NCBI GenBank assembly: GCA_016781085.1
Contig: JADDQZ010000059.1
Location: 36,026 to 74,246, forward strand
Origin: Actinomycetota bacterium
GTDB taxonomy: Bacteria > Actinomycetota > Thermoleophilia > Solirubrobacterales > Solirubrobacteraceae
Length of the DNA stretch: 38,221 bases
Direction: 5' to 3'
Position 1 is the first letter of the stretch. Every line of letters starts with the position of its first letter. Positions 21,480 to 38,221 of this stretch are shown here, one piece after another. Made by a program: the position numbers and the translations under genes. The notes below the pieces were generated by a model. It ran no database searches. It was not told where the DNA came from and was given only the letters and a program-made list of their open reading frames with translations.

Positions 21480-21496
21480 AGCGTTCCCCCACGGGG

Positions 21497-21841: not shown

Positions 21842-21888
21842 TAGACACTGGCGCTTAGCGCTCACCACCGATACGGAAAGAGAGATTC

Positions 21889-22563: not shown

Positions 22564-22589
22564 TCACGACCGCGTAGAGAGAGGCGAGT

Positions 22590-22615
22590 CCCGGGTGGCA
22601 CTCCTGCCGCCCGGG
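22590..22615. terminator. 11-bp stem hairpin between convergent dismutase and STAS genes
   Basis: CCCGGGTGGCA, loop CTCC, and TGCCGCCCGGG pair over eleven positions with a single G-T wobble. The hairpin begins 27 bases after the dismutase stop and ends 12 bases before the STAS stop. No T-run follows, so it is a U-less, probably bidirectional terminator. Confidence 0.7.
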
Positions 22616-22627
22616 CGGCCTTCCCAA

Positions 22628-22981: not shown

Positions 22982-23030
22982 TGATGCCTGGTGGTTCCCG
23001 GACTGTCGCCGAAACAATCGGCACGTGACG

Positions 23031-23414: not shown

Positions 23415-23418
23415 GCAG

Positions 23419-23423
23419 CCTCC
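23419..23423 (-). promoter_or_regulatory. Ribosome-binding site of the anti-sigma-like gene
   Basis: GGAGG on the minus strand lies only four bases before the GTG at 23414, a tight spacing. It fixes the start of the gene. It also lies inside a 24-codon upstream frame (23485-23411) that ends over the GTG as GTGA, so a passing ribosome could affect initiation. Confidence 0.55.
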
Positions 23424-23709
23424 AAGTTCGCAGTCGAGCGGATATACGGCCCAAAGGGCTCGGTCGGCATCTTCATGGTTTGCATCCCGTCATGAACACC
23501 TCGGAACCTTGGTCGACCCTGCCGGTCGCGCGTCGTGCCGGAAGTTGGAGCTTACCTGCCGGGAGACTCAAACGAATGAGTTGTCCTGCCCGCGCCGGTA
23601 CCCACTGGCTGCGGTGATGTAACCGCAGCAATCGCTCTGTGGCGCGGATGCCGGAACCACACTTGCCCGCGCAGATTGCCTCGTCAGTGGTACGGGCAGT
23701 AAAAGTCCA

Positions 23710-24144
23710 ATGGCTCGCACACAGATGCAATTCGACACGACGCCGGAGCGAATCTTCGAAGTGCTTTCCGATCCCCGCAGCTACGGCGACTGGGTGGTCG
23801 GATCGAAGGAGATCCGCTTCTGGGACCCGGACTTCCCTGCGCAGGGTTCGGCGTTTCATCACACGTTTCTCATCGGGCTGGTGCCGGTCAAGGACCACAC
23901 GACCGTGGTGGAAGTCGACGCGCCGCGGTATTTGCTTCTGCGCGCCAGAGCGCGGCCGACCGGTATCGCTCACGTCGCCTTGCGCCTTGAGCCGCGTAAC
24001 GGCAAGACGCAGGTGACGATCGAGGAATGGCCGGTCGACGGTGTCGCCGCCAAATTGCACAACCGGATTCAAGACAAGCTCATCGCGTTGCGCAACGTCG
24101 AATCCCTGCGGCGCCTCAAGCGACTTGCTGAGCAGCCGACATGA
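23710..24144 (+). CDS. SRPBCC family protein
   Basis: A 144-residue helix-grip protein. MQFDTTPERIFEVLSDPRSYGDWVVGSKEI is the family opening, with the typical aromatic/tryptophan position. It is followed by antiparallel strands (HTFLIGLVPVKDHTTVVEVDAPRYLLLRARARP) and a C-terminal helix (HNRIQDKLIALRNVESLRRLKRLAEQ). It probably binds a hydrophobic ligand; neither ligand nor activity is known. It is divergent from the anti-sigma-like gene, and its last 29 bases overlap the end of the convergent DUF1360 gene. The 295 bases upstream hold no recognised gene apart from the 24-codon frame on the other strand. Confidence 0.82.
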   Translation: MARTQMQFDTTPERIFEVLSDPRSYGDWVVGSKEIRFWDPDFPAQGSAFHHTFLIGLVPVKDHTTVVEVDAPRYLLLRARARPTGIAHVALRLEPRNGKTQVTIEEWPVDGVAAKLHNRIQDKLIALRNVESLRRLKRLAEQPT

Positions 24145-24658
24145 CGACCGCGGCGTCGGCGCCGGGCTCCTGGAGCACGTCGGCGCGAGTCCGGGCGATC
24201 TCGGCGGTCGCTTCGGTTTCGTTGGACTGTGAGCGCAGCCACGAAAAGGTGGTGTGCAGGAGGTCGTTGCAAGCCGAAACCGCCAGCACGCTCGTGACTG
24301 TGTTGGCTGCGGTCGGGGCGTACACCCGCAATGAGACAACCGCCAGCGCGCTCCAGCCGCCGGCGCAGCGCGTGCACGTCAACAGCTCGCCCACCGCGTA
24401 ACGCAAGCGTTTGCCTTTCGGGCGCTTACCGTCGGACGTCTCCTCGACGAATGGTTGCCTGACCCAGGTCTCGACTTTCTCTTGCACCAAGAGCTTCGAT
24501 AGCGCAAAAGTTGCGACGCCGAGAGGAATCAGCTCTGCTCGCTCGATCGGAGCCCGGCTACGTCCGCCAATGGCCGACAGGGCCAGGAGCGACGAATACG
24601 TGCCGGACAACAGGGCATAGTCGAGGGGCTTGGTCGGGGTCTCGGAGACAGGTTTCAT
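24116..24658 (-). CDS. DUF1360 membrane protein
   Basis: A 180-residue protein with hydrophobic segments near residues 13-27 (DYALLSGTYSSLLALSAIGG), 45-60 (LIPLGVATFALSKLLV) and 94-125. It carries the DUF1360 hallmark: KVETWVRQPFVEE, then a CTRCAGGW motif at the start of a helix (LLTCTRCAGGWSALAVVSL). The two cysteines are conserved in the family and may bind metal or form a redox pair, but the function is unknown. The ATG at 24658 has GAAGG eight bases upstream. The 3' end overlaps the convergent SRPBCC gene by 29 bases. Confidence 0.85.
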   Translation of the reverse strand: MKPVSETPTKPLDYALLSGTYSSLLALSAIGGRSRAPIERAELIPLGVATFALSKLLVQEKVETWVRQPFVEETSDGKRPKGKRLRYAVGELLTCTRCAGGWSALAVVSLRVYAPTAANTVTSVLAVSACNDLLHTTFSWLRSQSNETEATAEIARTRADVLQEPGADAAVVMSAAQQVA

Positions 24659-24669
24659 GACGAAGGCCT

Positions 24670-24846
24670 TCAGATCGGGCGAGGGTTGGGATCCGGGGGA
24701 AACGGCGCTGGCGCAGGCGTGGGCGCCGGAGGCACGGGGTCGGGTCCCGCTGGAAAGGGGTCAGGCGTCGGACCGGGGGAGGGTGGCGCAGGATCCGGTC
24801 CGGGCCCGGGCGCCGGGAAGGATGGTGAGTGGTCCGTCGTGATCAC
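24670..24846 (-). CDS. Short proline-rich hypothetical ORF
   Basis: A 58-codon frame from a GTG, ending 11 bases before the DUF1360 start. After VITTDHSPSF it becomes almost half proline in PxPxP runs (GPDPAPPSPGPTPDP, APTPAPAPFPPDPNP), like a flexible extracellular or wall-spanning stretch. An in-frame stop directly upstream excludes fusion with the membrane protein ahead of it. No ribosome-binding site is seen, and proline/glycine-rich frames arise easily in GC-rich DNA, so this is tentative. The opposite strand reads glycine-rich here and is judged less likely. Confidence 0.35.
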   Translation of the reverse strand: MITTDHSPSFPAPGPGPDPAPPSPGPTPDPFPAGPDPVPPAPTPAPAPFPPDPNPRPI

Positions 24847-24937
24847 AGCGCGGGGCTACCCATCGCTGTCGGCGGTCAACCGCGTCAAGCGCTACACCAG
24901 ACACGCCGGTGGCTGGCAAGCCCCGTTCGTATCGGAG

Positions 24938-25375
24938 TCAGACCGGGCGGTCGGCGAGGCGCTCGGATTCAGGCGGCCGGCGATCCGTGGGCATTGCGTC
25001 TTCGCTGTTGGGCACCAGGTCGGCGTTCGCAGGGGCCGGCGCGGACGTCTCGTGCGGCTGGGAGGGGTCCACGCCAGCGTCTCGCTCGGGCGGGACCGTA
25101 GCGCCGTAATGGGTGACCGGGTGTCCCGTGCCCCCGTGCACGGCCGCGTCCTGTTCGCCGATCGTCTCGCCGGAGTCGGTCTGCTGTCCGGCATGCTCGG
25201 CGGTGTCGCCCAGTGGGGTCGGGTCAGCGCCGATACCGGGGCCTCCGCCATGCGACTCGTCGGCGGCCACCGCGTCGTGGTGAGCGCGCGTCCTGCTCCT
25301 GGAGTTCAGGACGAATGCGGTCGCCAGGACCACGACGATCAGCAGTACGAGGAAAATCGGCACGGCGTATTCCAT
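24938..25375 (-). CDS. Single-pass membrane-anchored hypothetical protein
   Basis: A 145-residue protein with an N-terminal membrane helix (YAVPIFLVLLIVVVLATAFVL), a short basic stop-transfer (NSRSRTRAHH), and a long hydrophilic tail. The tail is rich in Gly, Pro, Asp, Glu and Thr and has no recognised domain (DESHGGGPGIGADP, ETIGEQDAAVHGGTG). The tail is probably disordered and, by the positive-inside rule, cytoplasmic. Function is unknown. The gene is read toward the proline-rich frame and DUF1360, and is divergent from the HAD phosphatase. The overlapping plus-strand frame has no sensible pattern. Confidence 0.6.
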   Translation of the reverse strand: MEYAVPIFLVLLIVVVLATAFVLNSRSRTRAHHDAVAADESHGGGPGIGADPTPLGDTAEHAGQQTDSGETIGEQDAAVHGGTGHPVTHYGATVPPERDAGVDPSQPHETSAPAPANADLVPNSEDAMPTDRRPPESERLADRPV

Positions 25376-25552
25376 GCGACTCGGCTACCCCCGGCCTTTT
25401 CGGCGCAAACGGCTAACACGCCGGCGGTTTGGCTTGCGCCTGCCTAGCGGTAGAGCGGAACAAACCGATGAAGGGAAATCACTGATGCAAGAACTCGTGC
25501 CGATGACGGCGCGGTACCGCACACCCACGGCTTGCGCCAGGCCTGGGACAAG

Positions 25553-26221
25553 ATGAGCGGATCGCAATCACCTCCTGTTGCCCTGCTGGACATCGACGGC
25601 ACGCTTGTCGACACCAACTATCAACATGCCTTGGCTTGGTACCGCGCGTTTCGCCGTCAGGACCTGACGATCCCGCTGTGGATCATCCACCGCCACATCG
25701 GCATGGGCGGGGACCAGCTGGTGCCGACTCTTGGCGGGGAGAAGTTCGCCGCCGAGAGGGGAGAAGCGGCGCGCGCAGCCGAGAAAGAGGAGTACGGGGC
25801 TTTGATCGAGCAAGTTCAGCCCTTGCCCGGCGCTCGGCGCCTCATCGAGCAGCTGAAGGAACGCGGTCACACCGTCATGCTGGCCTCCTCGGCCAAGGAA
25901 GAGGAAACCGAGCACTACGTCGACTTGCTCGGCGTGCGCGAGATCGTCGACGGCTGGACGATGTCGGCCGACGTTGAAGCCACCAAGCCGGAGCCCGACA
26001 TCATCGAAACGGCAATGGGCAAGGCCGGCGGAGGTCCTGCCGTGATGCTCGGCGACTCCACCTGGGACTTCATCGCCGCCGGGCGCGCAGGGGTGCCGGG
26101 CGTCGGCTTGTTGACCGGCGGATTCAGCCGCGAGGAACTGCTCGGAGCCGGGGCTGAAGTGGTGTTCGAGTCGCTCGAGGAGCTGTCTGAGTCCCTGCCC
26201 CAGACGCCGTTTTCGAAATAG
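25553..26221 (+). CDS. HAD-superfamily phosphatase (phosphoglycolate phosphatase-like)
   Basis: A 222-residue haloacid dehalogenase-like hydrolase. Motif I DIDGTLVDT carries the nucleophile Asp13 and acid/base Asp15. Motif II is VMLASSAKEEE, the motif III lysine is in ATKPEPDI, and motif IV is GDSTWDF. The alpha-helical cap between motifs I and II (YQHALAWYRAF through RRLIEQLKERG) is the C1 type seen in phosphoglycolate phosphatase and beta-phosphoglucomutase. The exact substrate cannot be inferred. The ATG at 25553 leaves the usual short lead before motif I; TTG 25532 is possible. The second sigma factor follows by 110 bases on the same strand. Confidence 0.87.
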   Translation: MSGSQSPPVALLDIDGTLVDTNYQHALAWYRAFRRQDLTIPLWIIHRHIGMGGDQLVPTLGGEKFAAERGEAARAAEKEEYGALIEQVQPLPGARRLIEQLKERGHTVMLASSAKEEETEHYVDLLGVREIVDGWTMSADVEATKPEPDIIETAMGKAGGGPAVMLGDSTWDFIAAGRAGVPGVGLLTGGFSREELLGAGAEVVFESLEELSESLPQTPFSK

Positions 26222-27366: not shown

Positions 27367-27391
27367 GTTTGAGCCCCCACTGGAAGGGACA
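27367..27391 (+). promoter_or_regulatory. Possible SigB/SigF-type promoter of the heptose glycan operon
   Basis: GTTT at 27367-27370 and GGGACA at 27386-27391 are separated by 15 bases. This fits the general-stress sigma pattern (GTTT, 13-17 bases, GGGTAT or GGGAAT) with two mismatches in the -10. It lies 43 bases before the first gene of the operon and downstream of a SigB-type sigma gene. The motif is short, so a chance match is quite possible. Confidence 0.3.
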
Positions 27392-27434
27392 GAATGATCG
27401 GAATGCCTAGAAGCGCTTCCTACCCCGCTTGGCC

Positions 27435-29105
27435 GTGAAGGTCCTCGGGATAAACGCCGTCTTCCATGATCCGGCTGCCGCTTTGGTCGTCGATGGGCGC
27501 ACGGTCGCGGCTGCCGAAGAAGAGCGCTTCTCCCGGCGAAAGCACGGCAAGACGCCGGTTCCCTTCTCCACTTGGGAGCTGCCCGAGCAGGCGATCCAAT
27601 GGTGCCTGAGCGAGGCCGGAATCGGTCCCGAGGAACTCGACGCGGTCGCGTACTCCTACGACCCCTCGCTGGCGGTCCAGCCCGGAACGGACCTGACTTC
27701 CGACGAGTGGGAGGGCTTGAGGACGTTGTACGCACAGCGCGCTCCGCTGTTCCTGCGCACGCTGCTGCCGCAAGTCGATCCCGTCAAGTTCCGCTGGGTA
27801 CCGCACCACGTCGCTCACGCCGCCTCGGCGTACCTGGCTTCAGGGCATGACCCTTGCAGCGTGCTGGTCCTCGACGGGCGCGGCGAGCGTGCATCGCATC
27901 TGGCCGGCCGCGCCGTTGGCGGCCAACTGGAAGTGCTGGCCTCGCAGCAGCTGCCGCACTCGCTTGGCTTGCTTTACGAGGAACTGACCGCCCATCTCGG
28001 CTTTCGCCGCTCGTCAGACGAGTACAAGGTGATGGCGATGGCTTCCTACGGGCAGCCACGGTTTCTCGAAGCTTTCCGTACGCTGGTGCGCGCGGATGAC
28101 GACGGCGGCTTCTTCGTAGGAGACATCGACTTCAGCTCCTTTGCGCCCCCGCTGATGCCCGGTGGCGACTTCACGCCAGATCACGCCGACCTCGCGTCGA
28201 CAGTGCAGCGGCGCTTGGAAGAAGTGCTGCTCGACCTGCTCCGTTGGCTGCACGCGCGCACGGGTGACTCGCATCTGGTGATGGCGGGCGGCGTGGCTTT
28301 GAACTGTGTGGCCAATACCCGGTTGTGGGAAGAAGGCCCGTTCGACTCCATCTGGATCCAGCCGGCGGCCGGTGACTCGGGAACGGCGTACGGAGCGGCT
28401 CTGGCCGTTGCTCGTCAACTGGGGGACGAGGTCAAGCCGATGCCTACGGCCGCGCTCGGCCGCGGCTGGTCCGACGACGAGCTCGAGAAGTGGTTGCGAA
28501 CAGCGGCCGTCGCCTATGAGCACACCGATGATGTCGCCAGAGAAGTCGCGCAGACCCTGGCGGACAATGGTGTGGTGGCGTGGTTTCAGGGGCGCTCTGA
28601 ATTCGGTCCCCGCGCGCTCGGTCACCGCTCGCTGCTGGCTGATCCTCGGCATCCGCGGAACCTGGAGAAGCTCAACGACATCAAGGGCCGCGAGCAGTTC
28701 CGGCCGGTGGCGCCGATGGTCCGGGCGCAGCGCGCGGCGGACATCTTCTCCGGTCCGCTTCCGAGCCCGTACATGTTGTTCACTCATCGCGTACACGAAG
28801 ACTGGATCGATCGCATCCCCACGGTCGTGCACGTCGACAAGACGGCGCGGGTGCAGACAGTCGACGAACGCGACGAGCCGCTGGTCGCCGCCATGCTCGA
28901 GCACTTCGAAATGCTCACCGGTGTCCCGGTAGTCGTCAACACCAGCTTGAATACGGCTGGACGTCCGATGGTCGACGACCCGCGCGACGCACTGGAGTGC
29001 TTCGGGTCGGCGCCCGTGGATTTGCTGGCCATCGGTCCGTTCCTCGTGCGGCGCCCCAGCGCGCCTGAGCTTGCGGCGCTAGCCGGCACTGAGGCCCAGG
29101 CGTGA
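27435..29105 (+). CDS. NodU/CmcH-family carbamoyltransferase
   Basis: A 556-residue enzyme expected to transfer a carbamoyl group from carbamoyl phosphate, via carbamoyl-adenylate, to a sugar hydroxyl. The Kae1-like N-terminal domain opens MKVLGINAVFHDPAAALVVDG and contains HHVAHAASAYLASG and VLVLDGRGERAS. The family signatures MAGGVALNCVANTRLWEEG and EFGPRALGHRSLLADPRHP, with FRPVAPMV, follow in the C-terminal domain. The GTG at 27435 gives the classical family N-terminus; a TTG at 27429 adds two residues, and neither has a clear ribosome-binding site. It is the first of nine overlapping genes and its stop overlaps the next start (GTGA). Context suggests it carbamoylates the glycan built by the operon. 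Confidence 0.92.
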   Translation: MKVLGINAVFHDPAAALVVDGRTVAAAEEERFSRRKHGKTPVPFSTWELPEQAIQWCLSEAGIGPEELDAVAYSYDPSLAVQPGTDLTSDEWEGLRTLYAQRAPLFLRTLLPQVDPVKFRWVPHHVAHAASAYLASGHDPCSVLVLDGRGERASHLAGRAVGGQLEVLASQQLPHSLGLLYEELTAHLGFRRSSDEYKVMAMASYGQPRFLEAFRTLVRADDDGGFFVGDIDFSSFAPPLMPGGDFTPDHADLASTVQRRLEEVLLDLLRWLHARTGDSHLVMAGGVALNCVANTRLWEEGPFDSIWIQPAAGDSGTAYGAALAVARQLGDEVKPMPTAALGRGWSDDELEKWLRTAAVAYEHTDDVAREVAQTLADNGVVAWFQGRSEFGPRALGHRSLLADPRHPRNLEKLNDIKGREQFRPVAPMVRAQRAADIFSGPLPSPYMLFTHRVHEDWIDRIPTVVHVDKTARVQTVDERDEPLVAAMLEHFEMLTGVPVVVNTSLNTAGRPMVDDPRDALECFGSAPVDLLAIGPFLVRRPSAPELAALAGTEAQA

Positions 29106-30715
29106 CAACGGGAGCCGGCGCGTCGGCAGCGCGTTACGACGTCGTCATTCCCACCTCCGGCCGCTCGTCGTTGCGCGCATTGCTGGAAGCGCTCGAGGCG
29201 GGCAGCGGTCCGCGGCCCGGACGCGTGATCGTGGTCGACGATCGGCGCCGGCGCGACGACGAGCTTGCGCTCGGTCAGCCCGGAAGCTGGCTGGCCGATC
29301 GGCTCTCCGTATTGGCCGGGCCGGGCCGCGGACCGGCCGCCGCGCGCAACGCCGGCTGGCAGGCGGCGAGCGGCGACTGGGTCGCCTTCCTCGACGACGA
29401 CGTCGTCCCGGAGGCCCGCTGGGCGCTCAAGCTCGCGGAGGATCTCGCGGTCGACTCCTCCGTGGCAGCGAGCCAGGGTGAAGTCATCGTGCCGCTGCCC
29501 CCGGGGCGTCGCCCGACCGATTGGGAGCGCAACGTCGCCGGCCTCCAAACCGCTGTTTGGGCTACCGCCGACATGGCGTACCGACGCAGCGTGTTGTCTG
29601 CCGTCGGCGGCTTCGACGAGCGTTTCCCGCGGGCCTATCGGGAAGACGCCGACCTCGGTCTGCGCGTGGTTGCTGGAGGTTGGTCGATCGTCAAGGGCAC
29701 GCGCCGGGTCTCACATCCGGTTCGTCCTGCGCCCGTTCGCGTCTCGTTGTCCAAGCAAGCCGGCAACGCGGACGACGTCTTGATGAGTGCTCTGCATGGT
29801 CGCGACTGGAGGATGCGGGCGGGCGCTCCTCCCGGCCGGCGCGTCCGGCACCTTGCCGCCACGGCGGCGGCCGTCGGGGCTGTGGGCTTCAATGCCGCGC
29901 GGCGGCCGCGCTCGGCCGCTGTCGCCGGGCTCCTCTGGGGCGCGGCTACGGCTGAGTTGGCCTGGGCGCGGATCGCTCCAGGTCCGCGCGACCGCACCGA
30001 GATCGCAACCATGGCCTGGACCTCCGCCGCCATGCCGTTTGCGGCCACGGGTTGGTGGCTCGTAGGGTGGGCGCGCTTGCGAAGGAACCTGGCCGACACG
30101 GCGCGCGCTCCGCACGGTGAATTGCGCGCGGACTTAACGCCCGCGGCGCGTCGCGGGCCGGACGAGTGTCCGGCTGCCGGCAGGAACCTTCTCGATCCGC
30201 CTGAAGCGGTCTTCTTCGACCGCGACGGGACGCTTGTGGTCGACGTCCCGTACAACGGCGATCCCGACCAAGTCCAGCTTGTGCCCGGGGCCCGCGCCGC
30301 GCTGTTGAAGCTGCGCAACGCCGGCATCGCTACCGCGGTGGTCTCGAACCAAAGCGGGGTAGCGCGCGGCTTGATCAGCTCCGAGCAGGTTGATGCGGTC
30401 AACGCGCGTATAGAGGAGCTGCTCGGGCCGCTGGGACCATGGGCGTGGTGTCCGCACGGTCCCGAAGACGGCTGCGATTGCCGCAAGCCCCGCCCCGGAC
30501 TGGTCCTGCGCGCCGCGCACGAGCTCGGTGTGGATCCGCGCCGCGTCGCGGTAGTCGGCGACATCGGCGCCGACATGGAGGCCGCACGGGCAGCCGGCGC
30601 TCGCTCCGTACTGGTACCGACGCCGACCACGCGGGCCGAAGAAGTGCAAGCGGCGCCCGTCGTCGCCGCTGACCTCGAAGCAGCCGTTGATCTCTTGCTG
30701 GCGGGCCGGGCATGA
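29102..30715 (+). CDS. Fusion of family 2 glycosyltransferase and GmhB heptose bisphosphate phosphatase
   Basis: A 537-residue two-part protein. Residues 10-230 form a GT2 (GT-A) domain: YDVVIPTSGR, VIVVDDRR, GPAAARNAGWQAASGDWVAFLDDDVVPEAR with the metal-binding acidic cluster, and FPRAYREDADLGLRV. Residues 245-330 are hydrophobic, probably two or three membrane helices. Residues 365-537 match GmhB, the HAD phosphatase that removes the 7-phosphate of D-glycero-D-manno-heptose 1,7-bisphosphate. It has Asp373/Asp375 in FFDRDGT, SNQSGVARG, and the zinc site Cys450, His452, Cys458 and Cys460. GmhB is normally a separate protein; fusion to a transferase ties precursor synthesis to the membrane. 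Both junctions are 4-base overlaps. Confidence 0.9.
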   Translation: MTTGAGASAARYDVVIPTSGRSSLRALLEALEAGSGPRPGRVIVVDDRRRRDDELALGQPGSWLADRLSVLAGPGRGPAAARNAGWQAASGDWVAFLDDDVVPEARWALKLAEDLAVDSSVAASQGEVIVPLPPGRRPTDWERNVAGLQTAVWATADMAYRRSVLSAVGGFDERFPRAYREDADLGLRVVAGGWSIVKGTRRVSHPVRPAPVRVSLSKQAGNADDVLMSALHGRDWRMRAGAPPGRRVRHLAATAAAVGAVGFNAARRPRSAAVAGLLWGAATAELAWARIAPGPRDRTEIATMAWTSAAMPFAATGWWLVGWARLRRNLADTARAPHGELRADLTPAARRGPDECPAAGRNLLDPPEAVFFDRDGTLVVDVPYNGDPDQVQLVPGARAALLKLRNAGIATAVVSNQSGVARGLISSEQVDAVNARIEELLGPLGPWAWCPHGPEDGCDCRKPRPGLVLRAAHELGVDPRRVAVVGDIGADMEAARAAGARSVLVPTPTTRAEEVQAAPVVAADLEAAVDLLLAGRA

Positions 30716-31767
30716 CGCATGTCCTGGCAATCCGCTCCGACAACGACGGCGACGTTCTGCTGAGCGGGCCGGCGCTGCGAGCGTTACGGGCGACGTGCGA
30801 TCGGCTGACGTTGTTGTGTGGCCCGCGAGGCCGCCATGCCGCTGAACTGCTTCCATGCGTCGACGAGGTCGTCCAGTGGCGCGCGGACTGGATCGACGCC
30901 GCACCGGCCCCCGTCGATCGCCAACACGTCGAGGAGCTGGTCCGTTCGATCGCCGCTCGCGATGTCGACCGGGCGGTCATCTTCACTTCCTTTCATCAAA
31001 GTCCGCTGCCCATGGCGCTGCTGTTGCGCATGGCCGGCGTTCCGTGGATCGGCGCGATATCGATCGACTATCCCGGCACGCTGCTCGATCTACGCCACAA
31101 CGTCAGTGACGACGTACACGAGGTAGAGCGCGCCTTGGACCTCGCCGTAGCCGCCGGCGGGAAGCTGGCCGCTGAGGATGACGCGCGGCTACGCGTGCGA
31201 TCACAGCCGCCCGGGGACTTCGCCCCGCCCTTCGCGGATTCCTACGTGGTCGTGCATCCCGGGGCGTCCGTGCCGGCACGGGCCTGGCCCGCGGGCCGTC
31301 ATGCGGAGCTGGTGGACGAAATGGTCGCGAGTGGGCGCCGCGTAGTCATCACCGGGAGCCCGGGCGAGCGCGAGCTCACCGGCGTCGTCGCGGGTCCGCC
31401 CCGCCCTGGAGTCCTCGACCTCGGTGGTCAGACGACGTTCGCCGAGCTGGCCGGGATCATCCGCGCAGCGGAATGCATCGTGGTCGGCAATACTGGGCCG
31501 GCTCACCTCGCGGCAGCGGTCGGCACGCCGGTGGTCTCGCTTTTCGCGCCCACGGTCCCGGTTGTTCGCTGGCGACCATGGAGAGTGGCTCAAGAGCTGC
31601 TGTTCATGCGCGTACCGTGCGCCGGCTGCCGCGCGCGCGCTTGCCCTGTCGAAGGGCACCCATGCATGTCGGGCGTCTCGGCGGGCGAGGTCGCCGCCGC
31701 CGTCGAGCGGCTTGTCCCCTTCACGGTGAGCGCTGACGCGCGCACGCCGGTAGGTGCTTTGGCATGA
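30712..31767 (+). CDS. Glycosyltransferase family 9 (heptosyltransferase-like)
   Basis: A 351-residue GT-B transferase of the ADP-heptose:LPS heptosyltransferase family. The N-terminus HVLAIRSDNDGDVLLSGPALRALRA is the acceptor-domain opening. VVVHPGASVPARAWPAGRHAELV and VVITGSPGERELTGVVAG begin the nucleotide-sugar domain. CIVVGNTGPAHLAAAVGTPVVSLFAPT is the family signature, with an asparagine-threonine pair where LPS enzymes usually have D(S/T). Near the C-terminus CAGCRARACPVEGHPC holds four cysteines, a possible metal site also found in other GT9 members. With GmhA, HldE and GmhB encoded alongside, ADP-heptose is the likely donor. The acceptor is unknown. Confidence 0.88.
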   Translation: MTHVLAIRSDNDGDVLLSGPALRALRATCDRLTLLCGPRGRHAAELLPCVDEVVQWRADWIDAAPAPVDRQHVEELVRSIAARDVDRAVIFTSFHQSPLPMALLLRMAGVPWIGAISIDYPGTLLDLRHNVSDDVHEVERALDLAVAAGGKLAAEDDARLRVRSQPPGDFAPPFADSYVVVHPGASVPARAWPAGRHAELVDEMVASGRRVVITGSPGERELTGVVAGPPRPGVLDLGGQTTFAELAGIIRAAECIVVGNTGPAHLAAAVGTPVVSLFAPTVPVVRWRPWRVAQELLFMRVPCAGCRARACPVEGHPCMSGVSAGEVAAAVERLVPFTVSADARTPVGALA

Positions 31768-32696
31768 AAATCCTTCTCTGGCACGTGCACGGGAGCTGGA
31801 CCACGGCGTTTGTCCACGGCCGCCATGACTACACCGTGCCCGTGACGCCCGAGCGCGGGCGCGACGGGGTGGGAATTGCGCGCACCTACACCTGGCCGGA
31901 GAAAGTCGAGGAGCTATCTCCGCAAGCCCTCGGAGACGCCGACTTCGATCTCGTCGTCTTGCAGCGCCCGCATGAGCTGGACCTCGCCGAGCAGTGGCTC
32001 GGGCGCCGGCCGGGGCGAGACCTTCCCGCCGTCTACGTCGAACACAACGCGCCCCAGGGCGCCATCAACGAGATGCGTCACCCGATGAGCGACCGCGATG
32101 ACGTGGTCGTGGTCCATGTCACGCACTTCAACGATCTGTTTTGGGATTGCGGAACGACTCAGACGCGAGTGATCGAACATGGAATCGTCGATCCCGGCGC
32201 GCGTTACACGGGTGAGGTGAGCCGCGCCGCGGTCGTGGTCAACGAGGCACGCCGCCGTGGACGCGTGACGGGCACCGATCTTCTTCCGCGGTTGGCGACC
32301 AGCGCACCGCTCGACCTCTTCGGCATGGACGCCGCGTCGCTGGGCGGAATCGAAGACTTGCCACACGCCGAGCTTCATCGCGAGATGGCGCGCCGGCGGG
32401 TGTACCTGCATCCCATCCGCTGGACTTCGCTCGGACTGTCACTGCTGGAAGCGATGCATCTCGGCATGCCGGTGGTAGCGGTGGGGGCGACAGAAGTGCA
32501 CGAAGCGGTGCCGCCGTCGGCGGGCATAGTCTCGACGAACGTCGATGTGCTGTCAGACGGCCTGCGCCGGCTGATCGCCGATCCCGACGAAGCAGCGAGA
32601 TTGGGAGCCGGTGCGCGCGCGGCGGCGCTCGAGCGCTACGGGCTTGAGCGCTTTCTCGCGGACTGGGACGACGTGCTCGAGGAGGTTGCGCGATGA
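31764..32696 (+). CDS. GT4-like glycosyltransferase (GT-B fold)
   Basis: A 310-residue protein that looks like a short GT-B glycosyltransferase. The N-terminal half has ILLWHVHGSWTTAFVHG, DFDLVVLQRPHELDLAEQWLG and LPAVYVEHNAPQG, like the acceptor domain. The C-terminal half has HREMARRRVYLHPIRWTSLGLSLLEAMHLGMPVVAVGATEVHEAV, the GT4-type donor-binding segment. The usual EX7E motif is modified: the first glutamate is replaced in WTSLGLSLLEAM. RLIADPDEAARLGAGARAAALERYGLERF is a typical closing helix. Donor and acceptor are unknown. It overlaps both neighbours by four bases (ATGA), and GAGGAGG near its end probably serves the next gene. Confidence 0.82.
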   Translation: MKILLWHVHGSWTTAFVHGRHDYTVPVTPERGRDGVGIARTYTWPEKVEELSPQALGDADFDLVVLQRPHELDLAEQWLGRRPGRDLPAVYVEHNAPQGAINEMRHPMSDRDDVVVVHVTHFNDLFWDCGTTQTRVIEHGIVDPGARYTGEVSRAAVVVNEARRRGRVTGTDLLPRLATSAPLDLFGMDAASLGGIEDLPHAELHREMARRRVYLHPIRWTSLGLSLLEAMHLGMPVVAVGATEVHEAVPPSAGIVSTNVDVLSDGLRRLIADPDEAARLGAGARAAALERYGLERFLADWDDVLEEVAR

Positions 32697-33916
32697 AAGT
32701 GGCGATGGTCTCAGAACACGCCAGCCCATTGGCAGTGCTTGGTGGGGTAGATGCCGGAGGACAGAACGTCCACGTCGCAGCGCTGGCGACACAGCTCGCC
32801 GCGCGCGGATGCGAAGTGGTCGTACACACCCGCCGTGACGACACGGCGCTGCCGCGCCGGGTGGCGCTGTCCCGCGGCGTCCTCGTCGACCACGTTGATG
32901 CCGGCCCGCCCAGCGAAGTCCCCAAGGACGAGCTGCTGTCCTACATGGCGGACTTCGCCGAAGAACTGCGTGAGCAGTGGTCCGACGACCCGCCCGACAT
33001 CGTCCACAGCCACTTCTGGATGTCCGGCATGGCAGCTCTCGTCGCTGCGGCGGATTCGCACATCCCTGTCGTGCAGACCTTCCACGCGCTCGGATCGGTG
33101 AAGCGCCTTCATCAAGGCAGCCGCGACACCAGTCCCTCTGGCCGCCTGGCGATCGAGCGCGACATCGTGCGACAAGTGGACCGTATCGTGGCGACGTGCT
33201 CAGACGAAGTGTTCGAGCTGGCGCGTATGGGCGCGAACCGTGCGCGCGTGTCCGTCGTACCTTGCGGCGTCGACCGCGAGCGCTTCTCGCCAGACGGACC
33301 CGCAGACTCACGGCCGCCGGGCCTTCACCGCATCGTCGCGGCCTGCCGGTTGGTCGAGCGTAAGGGAATCGCGGACCTCGTCACTGCGCTCGCCCAGCTA
33401 CCGGGCACCGAGCTGCATGTCGCCGGCGGCCCAGACGCGGCACAACTGGAGTTCGATCCCGAAGCGGTGCGCCTGCGCCGGCTTGCCGCCGACCTCGGAG
33501 TCGTCGACCGGCTACATCTCAGGGGTCGTGTTTCACGCGACGAGATGCCCATGCTGCTGCGCTCGGCTGACGCCGTGGTGTGCGTTCCCTGGTACGAGCC
33601 CTTCGGGCTGGTCCCGCTGGAAGCCATGGCTTGCGGCGTTCCCGTCGTGGCCAGCGCCGTCGGCGGGCAGATCGACTCCGTACGCGACGGCGTCACGGGC
33701 ATTCACGTACCGCCACGCGACCCCGACGCGCTCGCCAGGGCGCTGCGCGAGCTGCTAGCGGATCCCGGACGTCGAGCGGCCCTTGGCCTGGCCGGGGCCC
33801 GGCGTGTACGACGCCTGTACGGCTTCGACCGGATAGCCGCGAGTACTCAAGCGGTCTACCGGGACGTCCTCAACACACGATCGAACACCCTCAACGACCG
33901 GGAGGCATTGGCATGA
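32693..33916 (+). CDS. GT4 family glycosyltransferase
   Basis: A 407-residue retaining GT-B glycosyltransferase. EHASPLAVLGGVDAGGQNVHVAALATQLAARGCEVVVHTRRDD is the acceptor-side opening, similar to MshA and sucrose-phosphate-synthase-like enzymes. DIVHSHFWMSGMAAL and PVVQTFHALGSVKRLH follow. The donor domain has VVPCGVDRERFSPDG, AACRLVERKGIADLVTAL and the EX7E motif in YEPFGLVPLEAMACGVPVVASAVGG. DPDALARALRELLADP ends it. The resemblance to MshA does not prove mycothiol synthesis, because the neighbours are heptose genes. The stop overlaps gmhA (ATGA); GGGAGG upstream of that ATG lies inside this gene. Confidence 0.9.
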   Translation: MKVAMVSEHASPLAVLGGVDAGGQNVHVAALATQLAARGCEVVVHTRRDDTALPRRVALSRGVLVDHVDAGPPSEVPKDELLSYMADFAEELREQWSDDPPDIVHSHFWMSGMAALVAAADSHIPVVQTFHALGSVKRLHQGSRDTSPSGRLAIERDIVRQVDRIVATCSDEVFELARMGANRARVSVVPCGVDRERFSPDGPADSRPPGLHRIVAACRLVERKGIADLVTALAQLPGTELHVAGGPDAAQLEFDPEAVRLRRLAADLGVVDRLHLRGRVSRDEMPMLLRSADAVVCVPWYEPFGLVPLEAMACGVPVVASAVGGQIDSVRDGVTGIHVPPRDPDALARALRELLADPGRRAALGLAGARRVRRLYGFDRIAASTQAVYRDVLNTRSNTLNDREALA

Positions 33917-34536
33917 GCGGACGCTTTGAGCCGGGACTCACGCCGGCCGACCAGCATCTCGCGGCGCTCGGTGCCGCGCTGTCGCGACTGCGCCGCGACA
34001 CGGACCGCATCACCGGCTGGGCCGGCGAGCTCGTCGACGTGCTGGTAGGGGGCGGGCGCTTGCTCAGCACGGGCAACGGCGGATCCGCGTCGCAAGCCCA
34101 ACACCTCACTTCGGAACTGGTCGGGCGCTTCCGCGACGACCGTCCGGCGTTCAGCGCGATTGCGCTTTGCGCCGAGACGTCCGCGCTCACGGCCATCGGC
34201 AACGATTATGGCGTCGAAGCGATCTTCGAGCGCCAAGTACAGGCTCACGGGCGGCCGGGCGACGTCCTCATCGCGATTTCGACGTCCGGGCGTTCACCGA
34301 ACGTGGTCGCGGCCGTCGATGCCGCCAACTCGCTGGGCATGACGACTTGGGCGCTCACTGGTCCGCCCGGTAATCCTCTGGCCGACGCTTGCGACGATGC
34401 CCTTTGCGTGCAATCGCCCCTCACGGCGACGATCCAGGAAATCCATCTCGTCGCGATTCACCTTCTGTGCACCGCCTTCGACGCGCAGCTTCAAGCCGAC
34501 GCCATCACGGCGGAGCTCGCGGGAGAGGTCTCTTGA
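33913..34536 (+). CDS. gmhA: Phosphoheptose isomerase (SIS domain)
   Basis: A 207-residue SIS-domain enzyme expected to convert sedoheptulose 7-phosphate to D-glycero-D-manno-heptose 7-phosphate, the first committed step of heptose synthesis. LLSTGNGGSASQAQHLTSELVGRF is the phosphate loop plus metal-binding His/Glu helix of GmhA. LIAISTSGRSPNVVAAVDAA is the second sugar-phosphate loop, and TIQEIHLVAIHLLCTAFD contains the Gln/His pair at the family active site. The length is close to E. coli GmhA (192). The ATG at 33913 overlaps the previous stop and has GGGAGG seven bases upstream; the same frame is open from 33580 but antisense-like there. HldE follows with a TTGA overlap. Confidence 0.91.
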   Translation: MSGRFEPGLTPADQHLAALGAALSRLRRDTDRITGWAGELVDVLVGGGRLLSTGNGGSASQAQHLTSELVGRFRDDRPAFSAIALCAETSALTAIGNDYGVEAIFERQVQAHGRPGDVLIAISTSGRSPNVVAAVDAANSLGMTTWALTGPPGNPLADACDDALCVQSPLTATIQEIHLVAIHLLCTAFDAQLQADAITAELAGEVS

Positions 34537-35972
34537 AACGCCTCGTGGTGATCGGCGACGCCCTGCTTGACCGCGATCTCGACGGGCGGGCCGAGCGCCT
34601 TGCGCCCGACGCTCCAGTTCCCGTGGTCGAAGATATCGTCGAGCGCGCACGGCCCGGCGGCGCCGGGTTGGCCGCGGCACTCGCAGCGGCCACGGGCGAA
34701 GTCAGCGTGACGCTCGTCTGCGCGCTGGGCGACGACCCTGCGGGCCGCTTACTCGGCGACCTGCTCACGCGGACCGGCGTGACGGTCTGCGACCTCGGGC
34801 TCGCCGGTCAGACTCCGGAGAAAGTCCGTGTCCGCGCCGCTGGGCGCGCTCTCATGCGGCTCGACTACGGCGCGGGGGATGGGGCACCCGGCCACTTCAA
34901 CGGTGAAGCGCGCGCGGCGGTCAGCGAGGCCGACGCCGTGCTGGTGTCCGATTATGGGCGCGGAGTAGCGGCCGAGCCGAGCGTCCGCGCTGCGCTTTCG
35001 GCCCTGCCGTCGGAGCTGCCGCTCGTTTGGGACCCGCATCCGCGCGGGCCGGCGCCCGTGCCCGGCGTGCTCGTGGCCACGCCGAACGCCGGCGAAGCCG
35101 CGCGCTTCGCCCAGCACGCTTCGCTTGCGGACGACGAACCGCGGACAGCGGCCGAGACGCCGCCCGACGACGGTGTCGCCGACATGGCCCAAGCAGAAGA
35201 CAACGGTCGCCTTCTCGCCCGCCACTGGGGGGCCGTAGACGTGTGCGTGACCCTCGGCGCGCGCGGGGCGCTGCTGATAGGCGGGGACGGCCCCGCTCTG
35301 GCCGTCCCAGCTCGTCGTGTGACTGGCGGCGACCCGTGCGGCGCCGGCGATTGCTTTGCCACCACGGTCGCGATCCGCCTGGCGGCGGGGGATCTGCCGT
35401 CGGAAGCCGTGCGGGCGGGAGTCACTCGCGCTGCGGATTTCGTTGCCGCAGGCGGGGCGGCTGGTGCAGGTCAGCGTGGCTTCCGCAGAGCGCAGACGAC
35501 CGCGCGGGTGCCGACGACCGACCCTTACGCGGTGGCCGCGGAGGTTCGCGCCTCCGGTGGCACGGTCGTAGCCACAGGGGGCTGCTTCGACATCTTGCAC
35601 GCCGGACACCTCGAGACGCTGGAAGCTGCCCGCGCGCTGGGAGATTGCTTGATCGTCTGCTTGAACTCGGATGCGTCGGTGTCCCGGCTCAAAGGGCCCG
35701 ACCGCCCCGTCGTCTCGCAGCAGGAACGCGCCCGTCTGCTCACTGCGTTGTCTTGCGTCGACGCGGTGGCGATCTTCGAGCAAGACGACCCTTGCGAGGT
35801 GTTGCGCAAATTGCGCCCGCACGTGTGGGTCAAAGGCGGCGACTACGCCGTATCCGAGTTGCCGGAAGCTACGGCGCTCGCCCAATGGGGAGGCCGCCCC
35901 GTCATCGTTCCCTATGTGGCCGGCCGCTCGACCACAGGGTTGATTGAGGAGGTGGTTGCCCGTGTCCGCTGA
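34533..35972 (+). CDS. hldE: Bifunctional heptose 7-phosphate kinase / heptose 1-phosphate adenylyltransferase
   Basis: A 479-residue two-domain enzyme, almost the same size as E. coli HldE (477). The PfkB-family kinase domain (1-325) would make heptose 1,7-bisphosphate. It has VVIGDALLDRDLDG, APDAPVPVVEDI, RPGGAGLAAAL, KVRVRAAGRALMRLDYG, VLVSDYGRGV, LVWDPHPRG and GGDPCGAGDCF with catalytic Asp273. The C-terminal nucleotidyltransferase domain (about 345-479) would make ADP-heptose from the 1-phosphate. It has ATGGCFDILHAGHLETLE with HxGH (His356, His359), CLNSDASVSRLKGPDRP and VWVKGGDYAVSELPE. GmhB works between these two reactions. It starts at a TTG overlapping the gmhA stop, with GAGAGG upstream. 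Confidence 0.92.
   Translation: MKRLVVIGDALLDRDLDGRAERLAPDAPVPVVEDIVERARPGGAGLAAALAAATGEVSVTLVCALGDDPAGRLLGDLLTRTGVTVCDLGLAGQTPEKVRVRAAGRALMRLDYGAGDGAPGHFNGEARAAVSEADAVLVSDYGRGVAAEPSVRAALSALPSELPLVWDPHPRGPAPVPGVLVATPNAGEAARFAQHASLADDEPRTAAETPPDDGVADMAQAEDNGRLLARHWGAVDVCVTLGARGALLIGGDGPALAVPARRVTGGDPCGAGDCFATTVAIRLAAGDLPSEAVRAGVTRAADFVAAGGAAGAGQRGFRRAQTTARVPTTDPYAVAAEVRASGGTVVATGGCFDILHAGHLETLEAARALGDCLIVCLNSDASVSRLKGPDRPVVSQQERARLLTALSCVDAVAIFEQDDPCEVLRKLRPHVWVKGGDYAVSELPEATALAQWGGRPVIVPYVAGRSTTGLIEEVVARVR
35946..35952 (+). promoter_or_regulatory. Ribosome-binding site fixing the SDR start inside hldE
   Basis: GAGGAGG lies within the last codons of hldE, nine bases before the GTG at 35962. 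It favours that start over in-frame TTG codons at 35944 and 35956, and gives an 11-base overlap with hldE. Confidence 0.7.
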
Positions 35973-36657
35973 CGGATCGCTGGGAACCGTGATCGTGACC
36001 GGAGGCTCTTCAGGGCTGGGCGCGGCCGTCGCGGCGGCTGTCGAGCAGGAGGGCGGAACGCCCGTGGTGCTCGACTTGACTGCCCCTGAGGGCGATTGGG
36101 CGTTCGAGCAGGTCGATCTCGCTAAGCCACGAGAAGCGGAAGCCGCGGTGCGACGCGTGGCGGAGGCCCAAGGCGGACTGAACGCCGTTGTCACCGCGGC
36201 GGGTACCGATGCCTGTGGCGACATCCTCGACGTCGATCCCGACGACTGGGACCGCGTGGTGATGGTCAACCTGCTCGGAACGGCGGCCGTTGTGCGTGCC
36301 GCTCTGCCACATCTGCACCGTTCGCAAGGACGGGTCGTCACCGTGGCCTCGACGCTCGGCTGGCGCGCGCTACCGGCGGCGACCGCCTATTGCGCGAGCA
36401 AGTTCGGCGTCGTCGGGTTCACTCGTGCGCTGGCGACTGAGGTGGGAGGCAAGGTCGGCGTCACGCTGCTGCTGCCGGGCGGTATGCAGACGCACTTCTT
36501 CGACGGGCGCCCCGATGACTTCAAGCCCGGGCCCGACCAGCACCTCAACCGGCCCGAAGACGTCGCTCGCAGCGTGGTCTTCGCGCTGAGTCAGCCGCCC
36601 GGATGTGAAGTGCGGGAACTGCTGGTCACGCCCTCCACGGAGCCTTCCTGGCCATGA
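35962..36657 (+). CDS. Classical short-chain dehydrogenase/reductase
   Basis: A 231-residue NAD(P)-dependent oxidoreductase with a Rossmann fold. VIVTGGSSGLGAAVAAAVEQEGG is the TGxxxGxG cofactor loop. VVTAAGTDA replaces the NNAG motif, VTVASTLGWRALPA carries the catalytic serine, and YCASKFGVVGFTRAL provides YxxxK. All catalytic elements of the classical family are present. It is too short, and has the wrong cofactor and substrate motifs, to be HldD, the extended SDR epimerase of ADP-heptose. Its position between hldE and a GT9 suggests that it oxidises or reduces a sugar or sugar nucleotide in this pathway; the substrate is unknown. The stop overlaps the next gene (ATGA). Confidence 0.88.
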   Translation: MSADGSLGTVIVTGGSSGLGAAVAAAVEQEGGTPVVLDLTAPEGDWAFEQVDLAKPREAEAAVRRVAEAQGGLNAVVTAAGTDACGDILDVDPDDWDRVVMVNLLGTAAVVRAALPHLHRSQGRVVTVASTLGWRALPAATAYCASKFGVVGFTRALATEVGGKVGVTLLLPGGMQTHFFDGRPDDFKPGPDQHLNRPEDVARSVVFALSQPPGCEVRELLVTPSTEPSWP

Positions 36658-37628
36658 GCGCAGAGCGGGAGGAGCGACCGCTCCTACTCGCCTACCGCTC
36701 CTTGGGGCTCGGAGACTTCTTGACCGCCGTGCCAGCGCTACGCGCGCTGGCACGGGCTTACCCGGAGCACCGGCGCGTGTTGTGCGCGCCGGCTGCGCTA
36801 GTTCCTCTGCTCGAGCTGTCGGCGAGCTTTGACGAATTGGCGGAGACTCGTGCGCTGGCCGTGCCTGAGTCTCGCTGCCATGGCGCGCAGGTCGCCGTGA
36901 ACCTGCACGGCCGTGGGCCCCAGAGCCACATGGCGCTGCTCGCCACCGCGCCGGTCCGCTTGATCGCCTTCGACAACGCCGCCGCCGGTCATCGCGGGCC
37001 ACGCTGGCGCGCCGACGAACACGAGGTCGCGCGTTGGTGTCGGTTGCTGGACGAAGCTGGGATTCCCGCCGAGCCAGGTGATCTTCGTCTCGAAGTGCCA
37101 CCGTGGGATCCCCCCCCGGGAGCGGCGGGGGCGATCGTCATCCATCCCGGTGCCAGCAGCGTCGCGCGGCGGTGGCCGGCCGAGCGGTTCGCGGCAGTGG
37201 CAAGAGCGCAGCGTGAAGCCGGCTCGGTCGTAGCGATCACCGGATCGTTTGCGGAGCGAGCGTTGGCCGAGCGCGTCGCCGAACTCGCCGGCTTGGAAGA
37301 GGCATCCGTGTGGGCGGGTAAGACGAGCCTTGCCGAGCTCACCGCCATCGCCGCCCATGCCAAGAGTGTCATCTGCGGAGACACGGGGATGGCCCATCTG
37401 GCCACCGCGTTCGGCACTCCGTCGGTCGTGATCTTCGGTCCGACGCCGCCCGACCTGTGGGGACCCCCTGGCGATCGACCTGAGCACATTGTGCTTTGGG
37501 CAGGGCGAACCGGCGATCCGCACGCCAACGATCCTGACCCAGGGCTGCTGCAAGTGACGGTCGAGGACGCTCTCCGGGCCTTGGATCGACTTGAGGCGAT
37601 TTCAGGTCCCCTTACCACTGCTTCCTAA
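36654..37628 (+). CDS. Glycosyltransferase family 9 (second heptosyltransferase-like)
   Basis: A 324-residue GT-B enzyme, the second GT9 of the operon and only distantly like the first. LLLAYRSLGLGDFLTAVPALRALARAYP is the acceptor-domain opening, and VAVNLHGRGPQSHMALLA follows. AIVIHPGASSVARRWPAERFAAVARAQ and VVAITGSFAERALAERVAELAG begin the donor domain. SVICGDTGMAHLATAFGTPSVVIFGPTPPDLWGPP is the family signature, with the conserved GDTG that the first GT9 has altered. It lacks the cysteine cluster. Activity with ADP-heptose is likely from context. It is the last gene of the operon; 140 bases without a recognised gene follow before the PRC-barrel gene. Confidence 0.89.
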   Translation: MSAEREERPLLLAYRSLGLGDFLTAVPALRALARAYPEHRRVLCAPAALVPLLELSASFDELAETRALAVPESRCHGAQVAVNLHGRGPQSHMALLATAPVRLIAFDNAAAGHRGPRWRADEHEVARWCRLLDEAGIPAEPGDLRLEVPPWDPPPGAAGAIVIHPGASSVARRWPAERFAAVARAQREAGSVVAITGSFAERALAERVAELAGLEEASVWAGKTSLAELTAIAAHAKSVICGDTGMAHLATAFGTPSVVIFGPTPPDLWGPPGDRPEHIVLWAGRTGDPHANDPDPGLLQVTVEDALRALDRLEAISGPLTTAS

Positions 37629-37768
37629 AACGCTGTTCGTGGCGAATTGGCACCCCGCCCCTATGCCGTTCCCGTTCTGACATCGCTCCGAGACGCGGGA
37701 GAGACCGGGGGTACTCACTCGCCGAGGCAGATCTGTTGCTAACGGACCACAAGAGGGGGTCACCACAT

Positions 37769-38221
37769 ATGGCGACGTCGCAAGAAATTCTCACATGGCG
37801 CGGTTCGAACTTGATGGACAGTAGCGGCGCCAAGATCGGCACGATCGAAGAGATCTACGAGGACACCGATACCGGCGAACCCGAATGGGCGCTTGTCAAC
37901 ACCGGCCTGTTCGGCACCAAGAGCACGTTCGTTCCGCTGCGCGAGGCCAGCTCCCAAGGTGACGGCGTCTCCGTTCCTTACGACAAATCTCAAGTCAAGG
38001 ACGCGCCGCGGATCGACCAAGAAGGGGAGCTTTCGCGTGACGAAGAAGCTGCCCTCTACCAGCACTACGGCTTGAACTACGGTACGAGCCACTCGGATTC
38101 GGGCTTGCCCCAGGGCGACGCTGGCTTCACAGGCTCGTCCACCGGCACGTCGACGGGCGCGGATTTCGACCGCTCGTCCACCGGCACGTCGACGGGCGCG
38201 GATTTCGACCGCTCGTCCACC
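37769..38221 (+). CDS. PRC-barrel domain protein with C-terminal repeats (truncated by window end)
   Basis: The first 151 codons of a protein that continues beyond the window. The PRC-barrel covers about residues 5-85: WRGSNLMDSSGAKIGTIEEIY, EPEWALVNTGLFGTKSTFVPL and SVPYDKSQVKDAPRI. The family motif DQEGELSRDEEAALYQHYGLNY follows. Such proteins are common and abundant in actinobacteria and are often stress-linked, but their role is unclear. A low-complexity Gly/Ser/Thr tail begins near residue 110 and becomes exact repeats. GAGGGGG lies about ten bases before the ATG. A GGGTAC at 37709 recalls a SigB -10 but has no matching -35. It is separate from the glycan operon. Confidence 0.85.
   Translation, partial: MATSQEILTWRGSNLMDSSGAKIGTIEEIYEDTDTGEPEWALVNTGLFGTKSTFVPLREASSQGDGVSVPYDKSQVKDAPRIDQEGELSRDEEAALYQHYGLNYGTSHSDSGLPQGDAGFTGSSTGTSTGADFDRSSTGTSTGADFDRSST
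38135..38221 (+). repeat. Perfect 39-base tandem repeat in the PRC-barrel gene
   Basis: Two identical 39-base units (38135-38173 and 38174-38212) and the first nine bases of a third are visible; the array runs off the window. Each unit encodes SSTGTSTGADFDR in frame. Full DNA identity, including third codon positions, indicates recent duplication, so copy number may vary between strains. Confidence 0.93.

What the first reader, a model, noticed from the sequence alone, without database searches (positions are those of the whole stretch)
27435..37628. Nine-gene heptose-glycan operon with carbamoylation in a Gram-positive-type genome
GmhA, HldE and a GmhB domain together make a full ADP-D-glycero-beta-D-manno-heptose pathway. 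They are interleaved with five glycosyltransferase domains (GT2, two GT4-like, two GT9), a carbamoyltransferase and an SDR, and every gene overlaps the next. Heptose nucleotides are best known as lipopolysaccharide precursors, yet the surroundings (L,D-transpeptidase, SigB-type sigma factors, actinobacterial threonine operon) suggest no LPS. The product could be a carbamoylated heptose-containing wall glycan, glycolipid or secreted saccharide. ADP-heptose is also a known immune-active metabolite (ALPK1 ligand).
Basis: partly seen in the sequence, partly recalled or inferred. Interest (0 to 1): 0.78.

Follow-up and report, generated by a model that had tools for sequence, protein, structure and literature searches.

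The report
Stress-linked heptose wall-glycan operon (cwg type)
This is a nine-gene set for making a carbamoylated, heptose-containing sugar chain in a Gram-positive-type bacterium; it is the counterpart of the "cell wall glycan" (cwg) operon already known from Streptomyces, so it is a widespread but chemically uncharacterised system rather than a new one.

Summary
In detail: nine overlapping + strand genes at 27435-37628 encode a carbamoyltransferase, a GT2-GmhB fusion, GT9, two GT4, GmhA, HldE, a short SDR and a second GT9. The host is a Solirubrobacteraceae MAG (Actinomycetota). LpxC was absent from 61 family genomes and Omp85 from 14 operon-bearing genomes, so this is not LPS. It is not unprecedented. 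At least 33 of 80 named loci across Actinomycetota keep the same gene order. The published sigma-E promoter of the Streptomyces coelicolor cwg operon (SCO6179-6190, vancomycin-induced "cell wall glycan") matches exactly in one Streptomyces-type chromosome, directly upstream of a 12-gene operon with the same core in the same order, GmhB unfused. Best reading: a cwg-type operon that makes nucleotide-activated D-glycero-manno-heptose and assembles a carbamoylated heptose glycan for the envelope under stress control. Possibly new details: the GT2-GmhB fusion, an SDR, sigma-B-type promoter motifs (GTTT-N15-GGGTA) and a conserved GAAGCGCTTC palindrome upstream, synteny with a sigma-B/STAS module, and the NTP-promiscuity arginine (STTR5) in HldE. 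Glycan structure, acceptor and export route are unknown. Novelty: new member of a known kind. Interest is moderate.

The parts
27435..29105 (+). O-carbamoyltransferase (NodU/CmcH/TobZ family); cwgB-equivalent by position
   Evidence: Pfam Carbam_trans_C 3e-65 and _N 2e-52; PDB novobiocin carbamoyltransferase, TobZ and GdmN at E about 1e-85 to 1e-92, HHxxHAAS motif shared with TobZ
29102..30715 (+). GT2 glycosyltransferase fused to a GmhB-type heptose 1,7-bisphosphate phosphatase (GT2 about aa 13-330, GmhB about aa 366-535); two genes in Streptomyces cwg (C, D by position)
   Evidence: PDB GmhB 4pnh/3l8h/2gmw with CPHGPxDGCxCRKP zinc motif; split in Streptomyces
30712..31767 (+). GT9 heptosyltransferase-family enzyme; cwgE-equivalent
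   Evidence: Pfam PF01075 3e-26; heptosyltransferase III 77 bits, below cut-off
31764..32696 (+). GT4-like glycosyltransferase; cwgF-equivalent
   Evidence: Pfam Glycos_transf_1 8e-10; 62.5% identical to the Streptomyces counterpart
32693..33916 (+). GT4 glycosyltransferase, MshA-like; cwgG-equivalent
   Evidence: Pfam; MshA model 252 bits, below cut-off 462
33913..34536 (+). GmhA sedoheptulose-7-phosphate isomerase; cwgH-equivalent
   Evidence: PDB GmhA E about 1e-42 with SELxxRF and IQExHLxxIHxLC motifs; NCBIfam
34533..35972 (+). HldE bifunctional heptose-7-phosphate kinase / heptose-1-phosphate nucleotidyltransferase with STTR5 arginine (YVAGRSTT); cwgI-equivalent
   Evidence: HldE model 243 bits; rfaE domain II 181.3 vs cut-off 181.5; PDB 5x9q and HldA 4e84; STTR5 in 61 of 77 homologues
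35962..36657 (+). Short-chain dehydrogenase/reductase (optional member; not found in the Kocuria, Dietzia and Streptomyces versions)
   Evidence: Pfam adh_short 1e-36; presence/absence
36654..37628 (+). GT9 heptosyltransferase-family enzyme; cwgJ-equivalent
   Evidence: Pfam PF01075 2e-29; 48% to the Streptomyces counterpart
27367..27391 (+). Sigma-B-type promoter-like motif GTTT-N15-GGGACA (weak match)
   Evidence: sequence; GTTT-N15-GGGTA in 9 of 92 homologous upstream regions, none at N14 or N16
27410..27419 (.). Palindrome GAAGCGCTTC, putative operator 15 bp before the CarbT start
   Evidence: 10 exact and 18 one-mismatch copies in 102 upstream regions vs 0 and 4 in reversed control; only apparently intergenic AGAAGCGCTTC among 8 in the genome
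26248..27237 (+). Sigma-B/F-type sigma factor directly upstream (context, likely regulator)
   Evidence: Sigma70 r2, r3, r4; same neighbour and order in L113 and L114
25532..26221 (+). HAD phosphatase upstream; conserved neighbour in several Thermoleophilia loci (context)
   Evidence: Pfam; beside the operon in L032, L037, L113, L114

Best explanation
This is the Solirubrobacteraceae form of the actinobacterial cwg operon (S. coelicolor SCO6179-6190). [quoted passage not shown] Two GT9, two GT4 and one GT2 enzyme then build a short heptose-containing glycan in the cytoplasm; the carbamoyltransferase O-carbamoylates it, and the optional SDR modifies a sugar or precursor. The product is probably moved to the cell envelope by general machinery encoded elsewhere, and the operon is switched on by envelope or general stress, through sigma-B-type sigma factors here and sigma-E in Streptomyces. 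Shown by sequence: genes, order, homology to cwg, absence of LPS markers. Inferred: enzyme activities, glycan composition, envelope location, regulation in this organism.
For: Families and active-site motifs. The published 29-bp sigma-E promoter of cwg (PMC6767563) has an exact match in G713 and 1-2 mismatches in six other Streptomyces-type genomes. Directly downstream in G713 are 12 genes: dehydratase, CarbT, GT2, GmhB, GT9, GT4a, GT4b, GmhA, HldE, GT9, GT2, GT2. These agree with the published cwg labels: 12 genes, cwgE heptosyl transferase, cwgG glycosyltransferase, cwgH phosphoheptose isomerase, cwgI bifunctional synthase, with a divergent deacetylase upstream as at SCO6178. Same order in at least 33 of 80 loci; 44 of 397 phylum genomes. 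No LpxC or Omp85. Sigma-B-type promoter motif and sigma-B/STAS synteny. cwg is vancomycin- and sigma-E-induced; cwgA is up with salt.
Against: No enzyme was assayed and no glycan structure was found in the literature read; 'cell wall glycan' is itself a prediction. The operon holds no flippase, polymerase, priming transferase or ligase, and no clear transmembrane segment, so envelope delivery is inferred. GmhA, HldE kinase and GT9 scores lie below curated equivalog cut-offs. The window promoter matches the sigma-B consensus only partly. G713 is unnamed; its identification with the S. coelicolor operon rests on the exact promoter and the gene content.
Confidence: 0.72

Rival explanations
1. The operon makes a soluble intracellular or secreted carbamoylated heptose oligosaccharide or small glycoside (a stress protectant or cofactor-like molecule), not an envelope-bound glycan.
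For: No transmembrane segments and no export, polymerase or ligase genes; GT4b is closest to MshA of mycothiol synthesis and the GT2 part scores with MftF; salt-linked expression of cwgA and of an annotated heptosyltransferase gene in Frankia.
Against: Streptomyces cwg is part of the cell-envelope stress regulon; general wall-attachment (LCP) proteins are encoded in all 14 genomes tested, so export genes need not be in the operon.
Confidence: 0.2
2. A specialised-metabolite sugar cluster, as in septacidin-type antibiotics, decorating an aglycone.
For: Streptomyces uses heptose nucleotides for septacidin; the carbamoyltransferase is closest to antibiotic tailoring enzymes.
Against: No aglycone or scaffold gene in or beside the operon; conserved order across many actinobacterial families with a tree that largely follows taxonomy.
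Confidence: 0.05
3. An LPS or LPS-like core in an organism with an outer membrane.
For: GmhA-HldE-GmhB-GT9 is the LPS inner-core gene set; a related core lies on Burkholderiaceae replicons.
Against: LpxC 0 of 61 family genomes, with positive controls; Omp85 0 of 14; no HldD above cut-off in 14.
Confidence: 0.01
4. Protein O-heptosylation, as by Aah/TibC heptosyltransferases.
For: GT9a has a weak match to TIGR04414 (25 bits, cut-off 200).
Against: Five different GT domains plus a carbamoyltransferase imply an oligosaccharide; no autotransporter or adhesin partner in the operon.
Confidence: 0.02

Closest known systems
cwg (cell wall glycan) operon, Streptomyces coelicolor SCO6179-6190
   Same: CarbT, GT2, GmhB, GT9, GT4a, GT4b, GmhA, HldE, GT9 in the same order (48-67% identity), downstream of the published sigma-E promoter
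   Different: The window lacks the NAD-dependent dehydratase (first gene) and the two terminal GT2 genes, has GT2 and GmhB fused, adds an SDR, and has sigma-B-type rather than sigma-E promoter features
LPS inner-core heptose pathway (GmhA, HldE, GmhB, WaaC/WaaF)
   Same: Same activated-heptose enzymes and GT9 transferases
   Different: No lipid A or outer membrane genes; extra GT4, GT2 and carbamoyltransferase; no HldD above cut-off
Septacidin and related heptose pathways of actinomycetes
   Same: Activated heptose made in a Gram-positive
   Different: No scaffold genes; conserved multi-GT operon
Burkholderiaceae carbamoyltransferase-GT9-GT2-GT4 clusters on large replicons (L171-L173)
   Same: GmhB-type HAD, GT9, CarbT (48-49%), GT2, GT9, GT4 in collinear order plus UDP-glucuronate decarboxylase
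   Different: No GmhA or HldE annotated in the cluster; Gram-negative hosts

Membership tests
cwg operon (S. coelicolor type) | Shared genes in the same order: CarbT-GT2-GmhB-GT9-GT4-GT4-GmhA-HldE-GT9 | tested here: met
   tblastn onto the operon behind the cwg promoter, 48-67% identity, collinear
cwg operon (S. coelicolor type) | NAD-dependent dehydratase first and two GT2 genes last (12 genes) | tested here: not met
   Absent from the window operon; these genes vary across Actinomycetota, so I treat them as accessory to the type, not defining; the window is a cwg-type homologue, not the 12-gene form
cwg operon (S. coelicolor type) | Sigma-E promoter | tested here: not met
   Sigma-E-like pattern not enriched over shuffles in upstream regions (15 vs 11 expected) and the window is not among its matches; a regulatory difference, not a gene-content one
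cwg operon (S. coelicolor type) | Induction by vancomycin; product is a cell wall glycan | not testable with these tools
   Glycan is predicted only, also in Streptomyces
[quoted passage not shown]
   activity not assayed
[quoted passage not shown]
   YVAGRSTT in window HldE; 61 of 77 homologues; rule from PMC11461863
LPS core biosynthesis | Lipid A synthesis (LpxC) and Omp85 in the genome | tested here: not met
   0 of 61 and 0 of 14 genomes; the own MAG is 89% complete
LPS core biosynthesis | HldD ADP-heptose 6-epimerase | tested here: not met
   No match over cut-off in 14 genomes
NodU/CmcH/TobZ O-carbamoyltransferases | Both Carbam_trans domains and HHxxH motif | tested here: met

The most novel reading that the evidence does not exclude
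A phylum-wide, general-stress-controlled class of carbamoylated heptose glycan exists in Gram-positive Actinomycetota, with its own conserved operator (GAAGCGCTTC) and an HldE that also makes CDP- or UDP-heptose; in the deep-branching Thermoleophilia it is driven by a sigma-B-type module beside the operon. The glycan would be a chemically undescribed envelope component.
Probability: 0.3. Interest if true: 0.65.

Novelty: new member of a known kind. Interest (0 to 1): 0.42.

Why it matters
Heptose nucleotides are usually taught as LPS precursors. This operon and its many relatives show that a complete activated-heptose gene set, coupled to a carbamoyltransferase and five glycosyltransferase domains, is a conserved, stress-linked trait of many Gram-positive-type Actinomycetota. 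The link to Streptomyces cwg makes the unknown glycan testable in a tractable laboratory strain, and the STTR5 arginine bears on which nucleotide-heptoses Gram-positive bacteria can make.

Tried and rejected
LPS/outer membrane: rejected. Canonical HldD: none over cut-off. Bleomycin sugar-gene resemblance: a remembered lead; the literature search found nothing usable. Burkholderia low-oxygen (lxa) locus as the Burkholderia counterpart: the papers did not mention these genes. LacI regulator beside the operon to explain the palindrome: only three loci have one, kilobases away. A genome-wide regulon for the palindrome: the seven other AGAAGCGCTTC sites in the MAG appear to lie inside genes. Sigma-E-like sites in upstream regions: not above shuffles. 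Structure prediction was not used, because sequence matches were clear.

Full report
The observation. Nine + strand genes run from 27435 to 37628. In order they are a carbamoyltransferase (CarbT), a GT2-GmhB fusion, GT9a, GT4a, an MshA-like GT4b, GmhA, HldE, a short SDR and GT9b. All eight junctions overlap. Active-site motifs are intact: GmhA aligns with solved GmhA structures through SELxxRF and IQExHL; the HldE C-terminal half aligns with PDB 5x9q and its kinase half with HldA 4e84; the GmhB domain keeps the CPHGPxDGCxCRKP zinc motif; CarbT aligns along its length with TobZ, GdmN and the novobiocin enzyme. Only one HldE homologue was found in the genome.

The host. The window lies on contig C82 of a 2.29-Mb, 89%-complete MAG. 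Its family is Solirubrobacteraceae (Thermoleophilia, Actinomycetota): contigs of same-family genomes match named Solirubrobacteraceae records by length (234,444 and 648,150 bp, and for G080), and the CarbT tree places the window with Solirubrobacter pratensis. LpxC is absent in 61 family genomes and Omp85 in 14 operon-bearing genomes, while both ring in Gram-negative controls. No HldD epimerase passes its cut-off. So there is no sign of LPS, and the heptose is predicted to stay D-glycero unless the SDR acts on it (inference).

Distribution. Within the family the fusion gene is found at high identity in at least 16 of 100 sampled relatives. A scan of named genomes kept 80 loci; 33 show exactly the nine-gene order, and others differ mainly by contig ends or by loss or movement of the SDR or GT4 genes. 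They include Cellulomonas, Georgenia, Knoellia, Nocardia, Kribbella, Dietzia, Kocuria and Modestobacter. In a phylum sample, 44 of 397 genomes and 31 of 246 genera match. The CarbT tree largely follows taxonomy, which suggests old vertical inheritance with losses and some transfer.

The known counterpart. Tran et al. 2019 (PMC6767563) list the sigma-E promoter of the 12-gene S. [quoted passage not shown] I searched that 29-bp promoter in 394 Streptomyces-type genomes. One exact match (G713, 8.6 Mb) and six near matches were found. In G713 and G371 the operon directly downstream is the window's operon; in G713 it reads dehydratase, CarbT, GT2, GmhB, GT9, GT4a, GT4b, GmhA, HldE, GT9, GT2, GT2, which is 12 genes, with a divergent polysaccharide deacetylase upstream. 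This agrees with the published labels: cwgE heptosyl transferase, cwgG glycosyltransferase, cwgH phosphoheptose isomerase, cwgI bifunctional synthase/transferase, SCO6178 deacetylase. That the published "dehydratase" cwgD is GmhB is my inference from position. Genus g78 is taken as Streptomyces because named Streptomyces plasmid copies group with it in the tree and because it carries the cwg promoter.

Regulation. In Streptomyces the operon answers to sigma-E, and cwgA rises with salt. In the window a sigma-B/F-type sigma factor ends about 200 bp before CarbT. The block STAS - DUF1360 - HAD - sigma - operon is syntenic in G012 and G060 (L113, L114). Upstream regions of the operon hold GTTT-N15-GGGTA in 9 of 92 non-redundant cases with none at N14 or N16; the window has the weaker GTTT-N15-GGGACA at 27367-27391. 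A palindrome GAAGCGCTTC, at 27410-27419 in the window, occurs exactly in 10 and with one mismatch in 18 of 102 upstream regions, against 0 and 4 in a reversed control; some of these loci are close relatives, so the counts are not fully independent. In the MAG it is the only one of eight AGAAGCGCTTC sites that is not inside an apparent gene. Its AANCGNTT core resembles LacI-family operators (background knowledge), but no regulator was identified.

Chemistry. Tang et al. 2024, as summarised in PMC11461863, tie an arginine at position 5 of (F/L)XXGXSTT to making CDP- and UDP-heptose. The window HldE reads YVAGRSTT, and 61 of 77 homologues share the arginine. No protein of the operon has a clear transmembrane segment. 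Export, polymerisation and attachment are therefore either not needed or are supplied from elsewhere; LCP wall-attachment proteins are present in all 14 genomes tested. Accessory genes in other lineages (an NAD-dependent dehydratase of the UDP-glucuronate decarboxylase type, extra GT2, aldehyde dehydrogenase, a possible pyruvyl transferase) suggest a variable glycan on a common core (family names for these partly by eye).

Verdict. The system is the cwg operon type known since Hong et al. 2002 (cited in the papers), so novelty is "new member of a known kind". Regulatory motifs, the fusion and the STTR5 prediction are useful additions. The product remains unknown in the literature I could read.

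Noticed in passing
window 27410-27419 and upstream regions of homologous operons: Conserved palindrome GAAGCGCTTC before the first gene in many actinobacterial families, sometimes in two copies (L060, L164); regulator unknown.
   Followed up: partly
L171, L172, L173: Burkholderiaceae large replicons carry a collinear GmhB-type HAD-GT9-CarbT-GT2-GT9-GT4 core with UDP-glucuronate decarboxylase, near stress genes (BON, CsbD, hemerythrin, Mn catalase), without GmhA or HldE in the cluster.
   Followed up: partly
L046 (Sphaerisporangium cinnabarinum ATCC 31213, QAPD01000002.1): Its CarbT is nearly identical to Cellulosimicrobium funkei (branch 0.0098), so the assembly is probably mislabelled.
   Followed up: no
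L047 (Acidobacteriota MAG REEB343) and L042 (Dormibacteraeota MAG S106_Bin_1): Operon copies inside the actinobacterial clade: likely binning contamination or recent transfer.
   Followed up: no
L019 (G001:C26:41014-44592): A same-family genome in which this operon was not found has another heptose set: GmhA-like, separate HldE halves and GmhB.
   Followed up: no
window 20592-26221: Stress-type neighbourhood: a second sigma-B-type factor, cupin, Fe/Mn superoxide dismutase, STAS protein, DUF1360 and HAD phosphatase; partly syntenic with L113 and L114.
   Followed up: partly
window 37736-38221: PRC-barrel protein with a tandem STGTSTGADFDRS repeat running off the window end; PRC-barrel and CsbD genes also lie near the Streptomyces plasmid copy (L169).
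   Followed up: no
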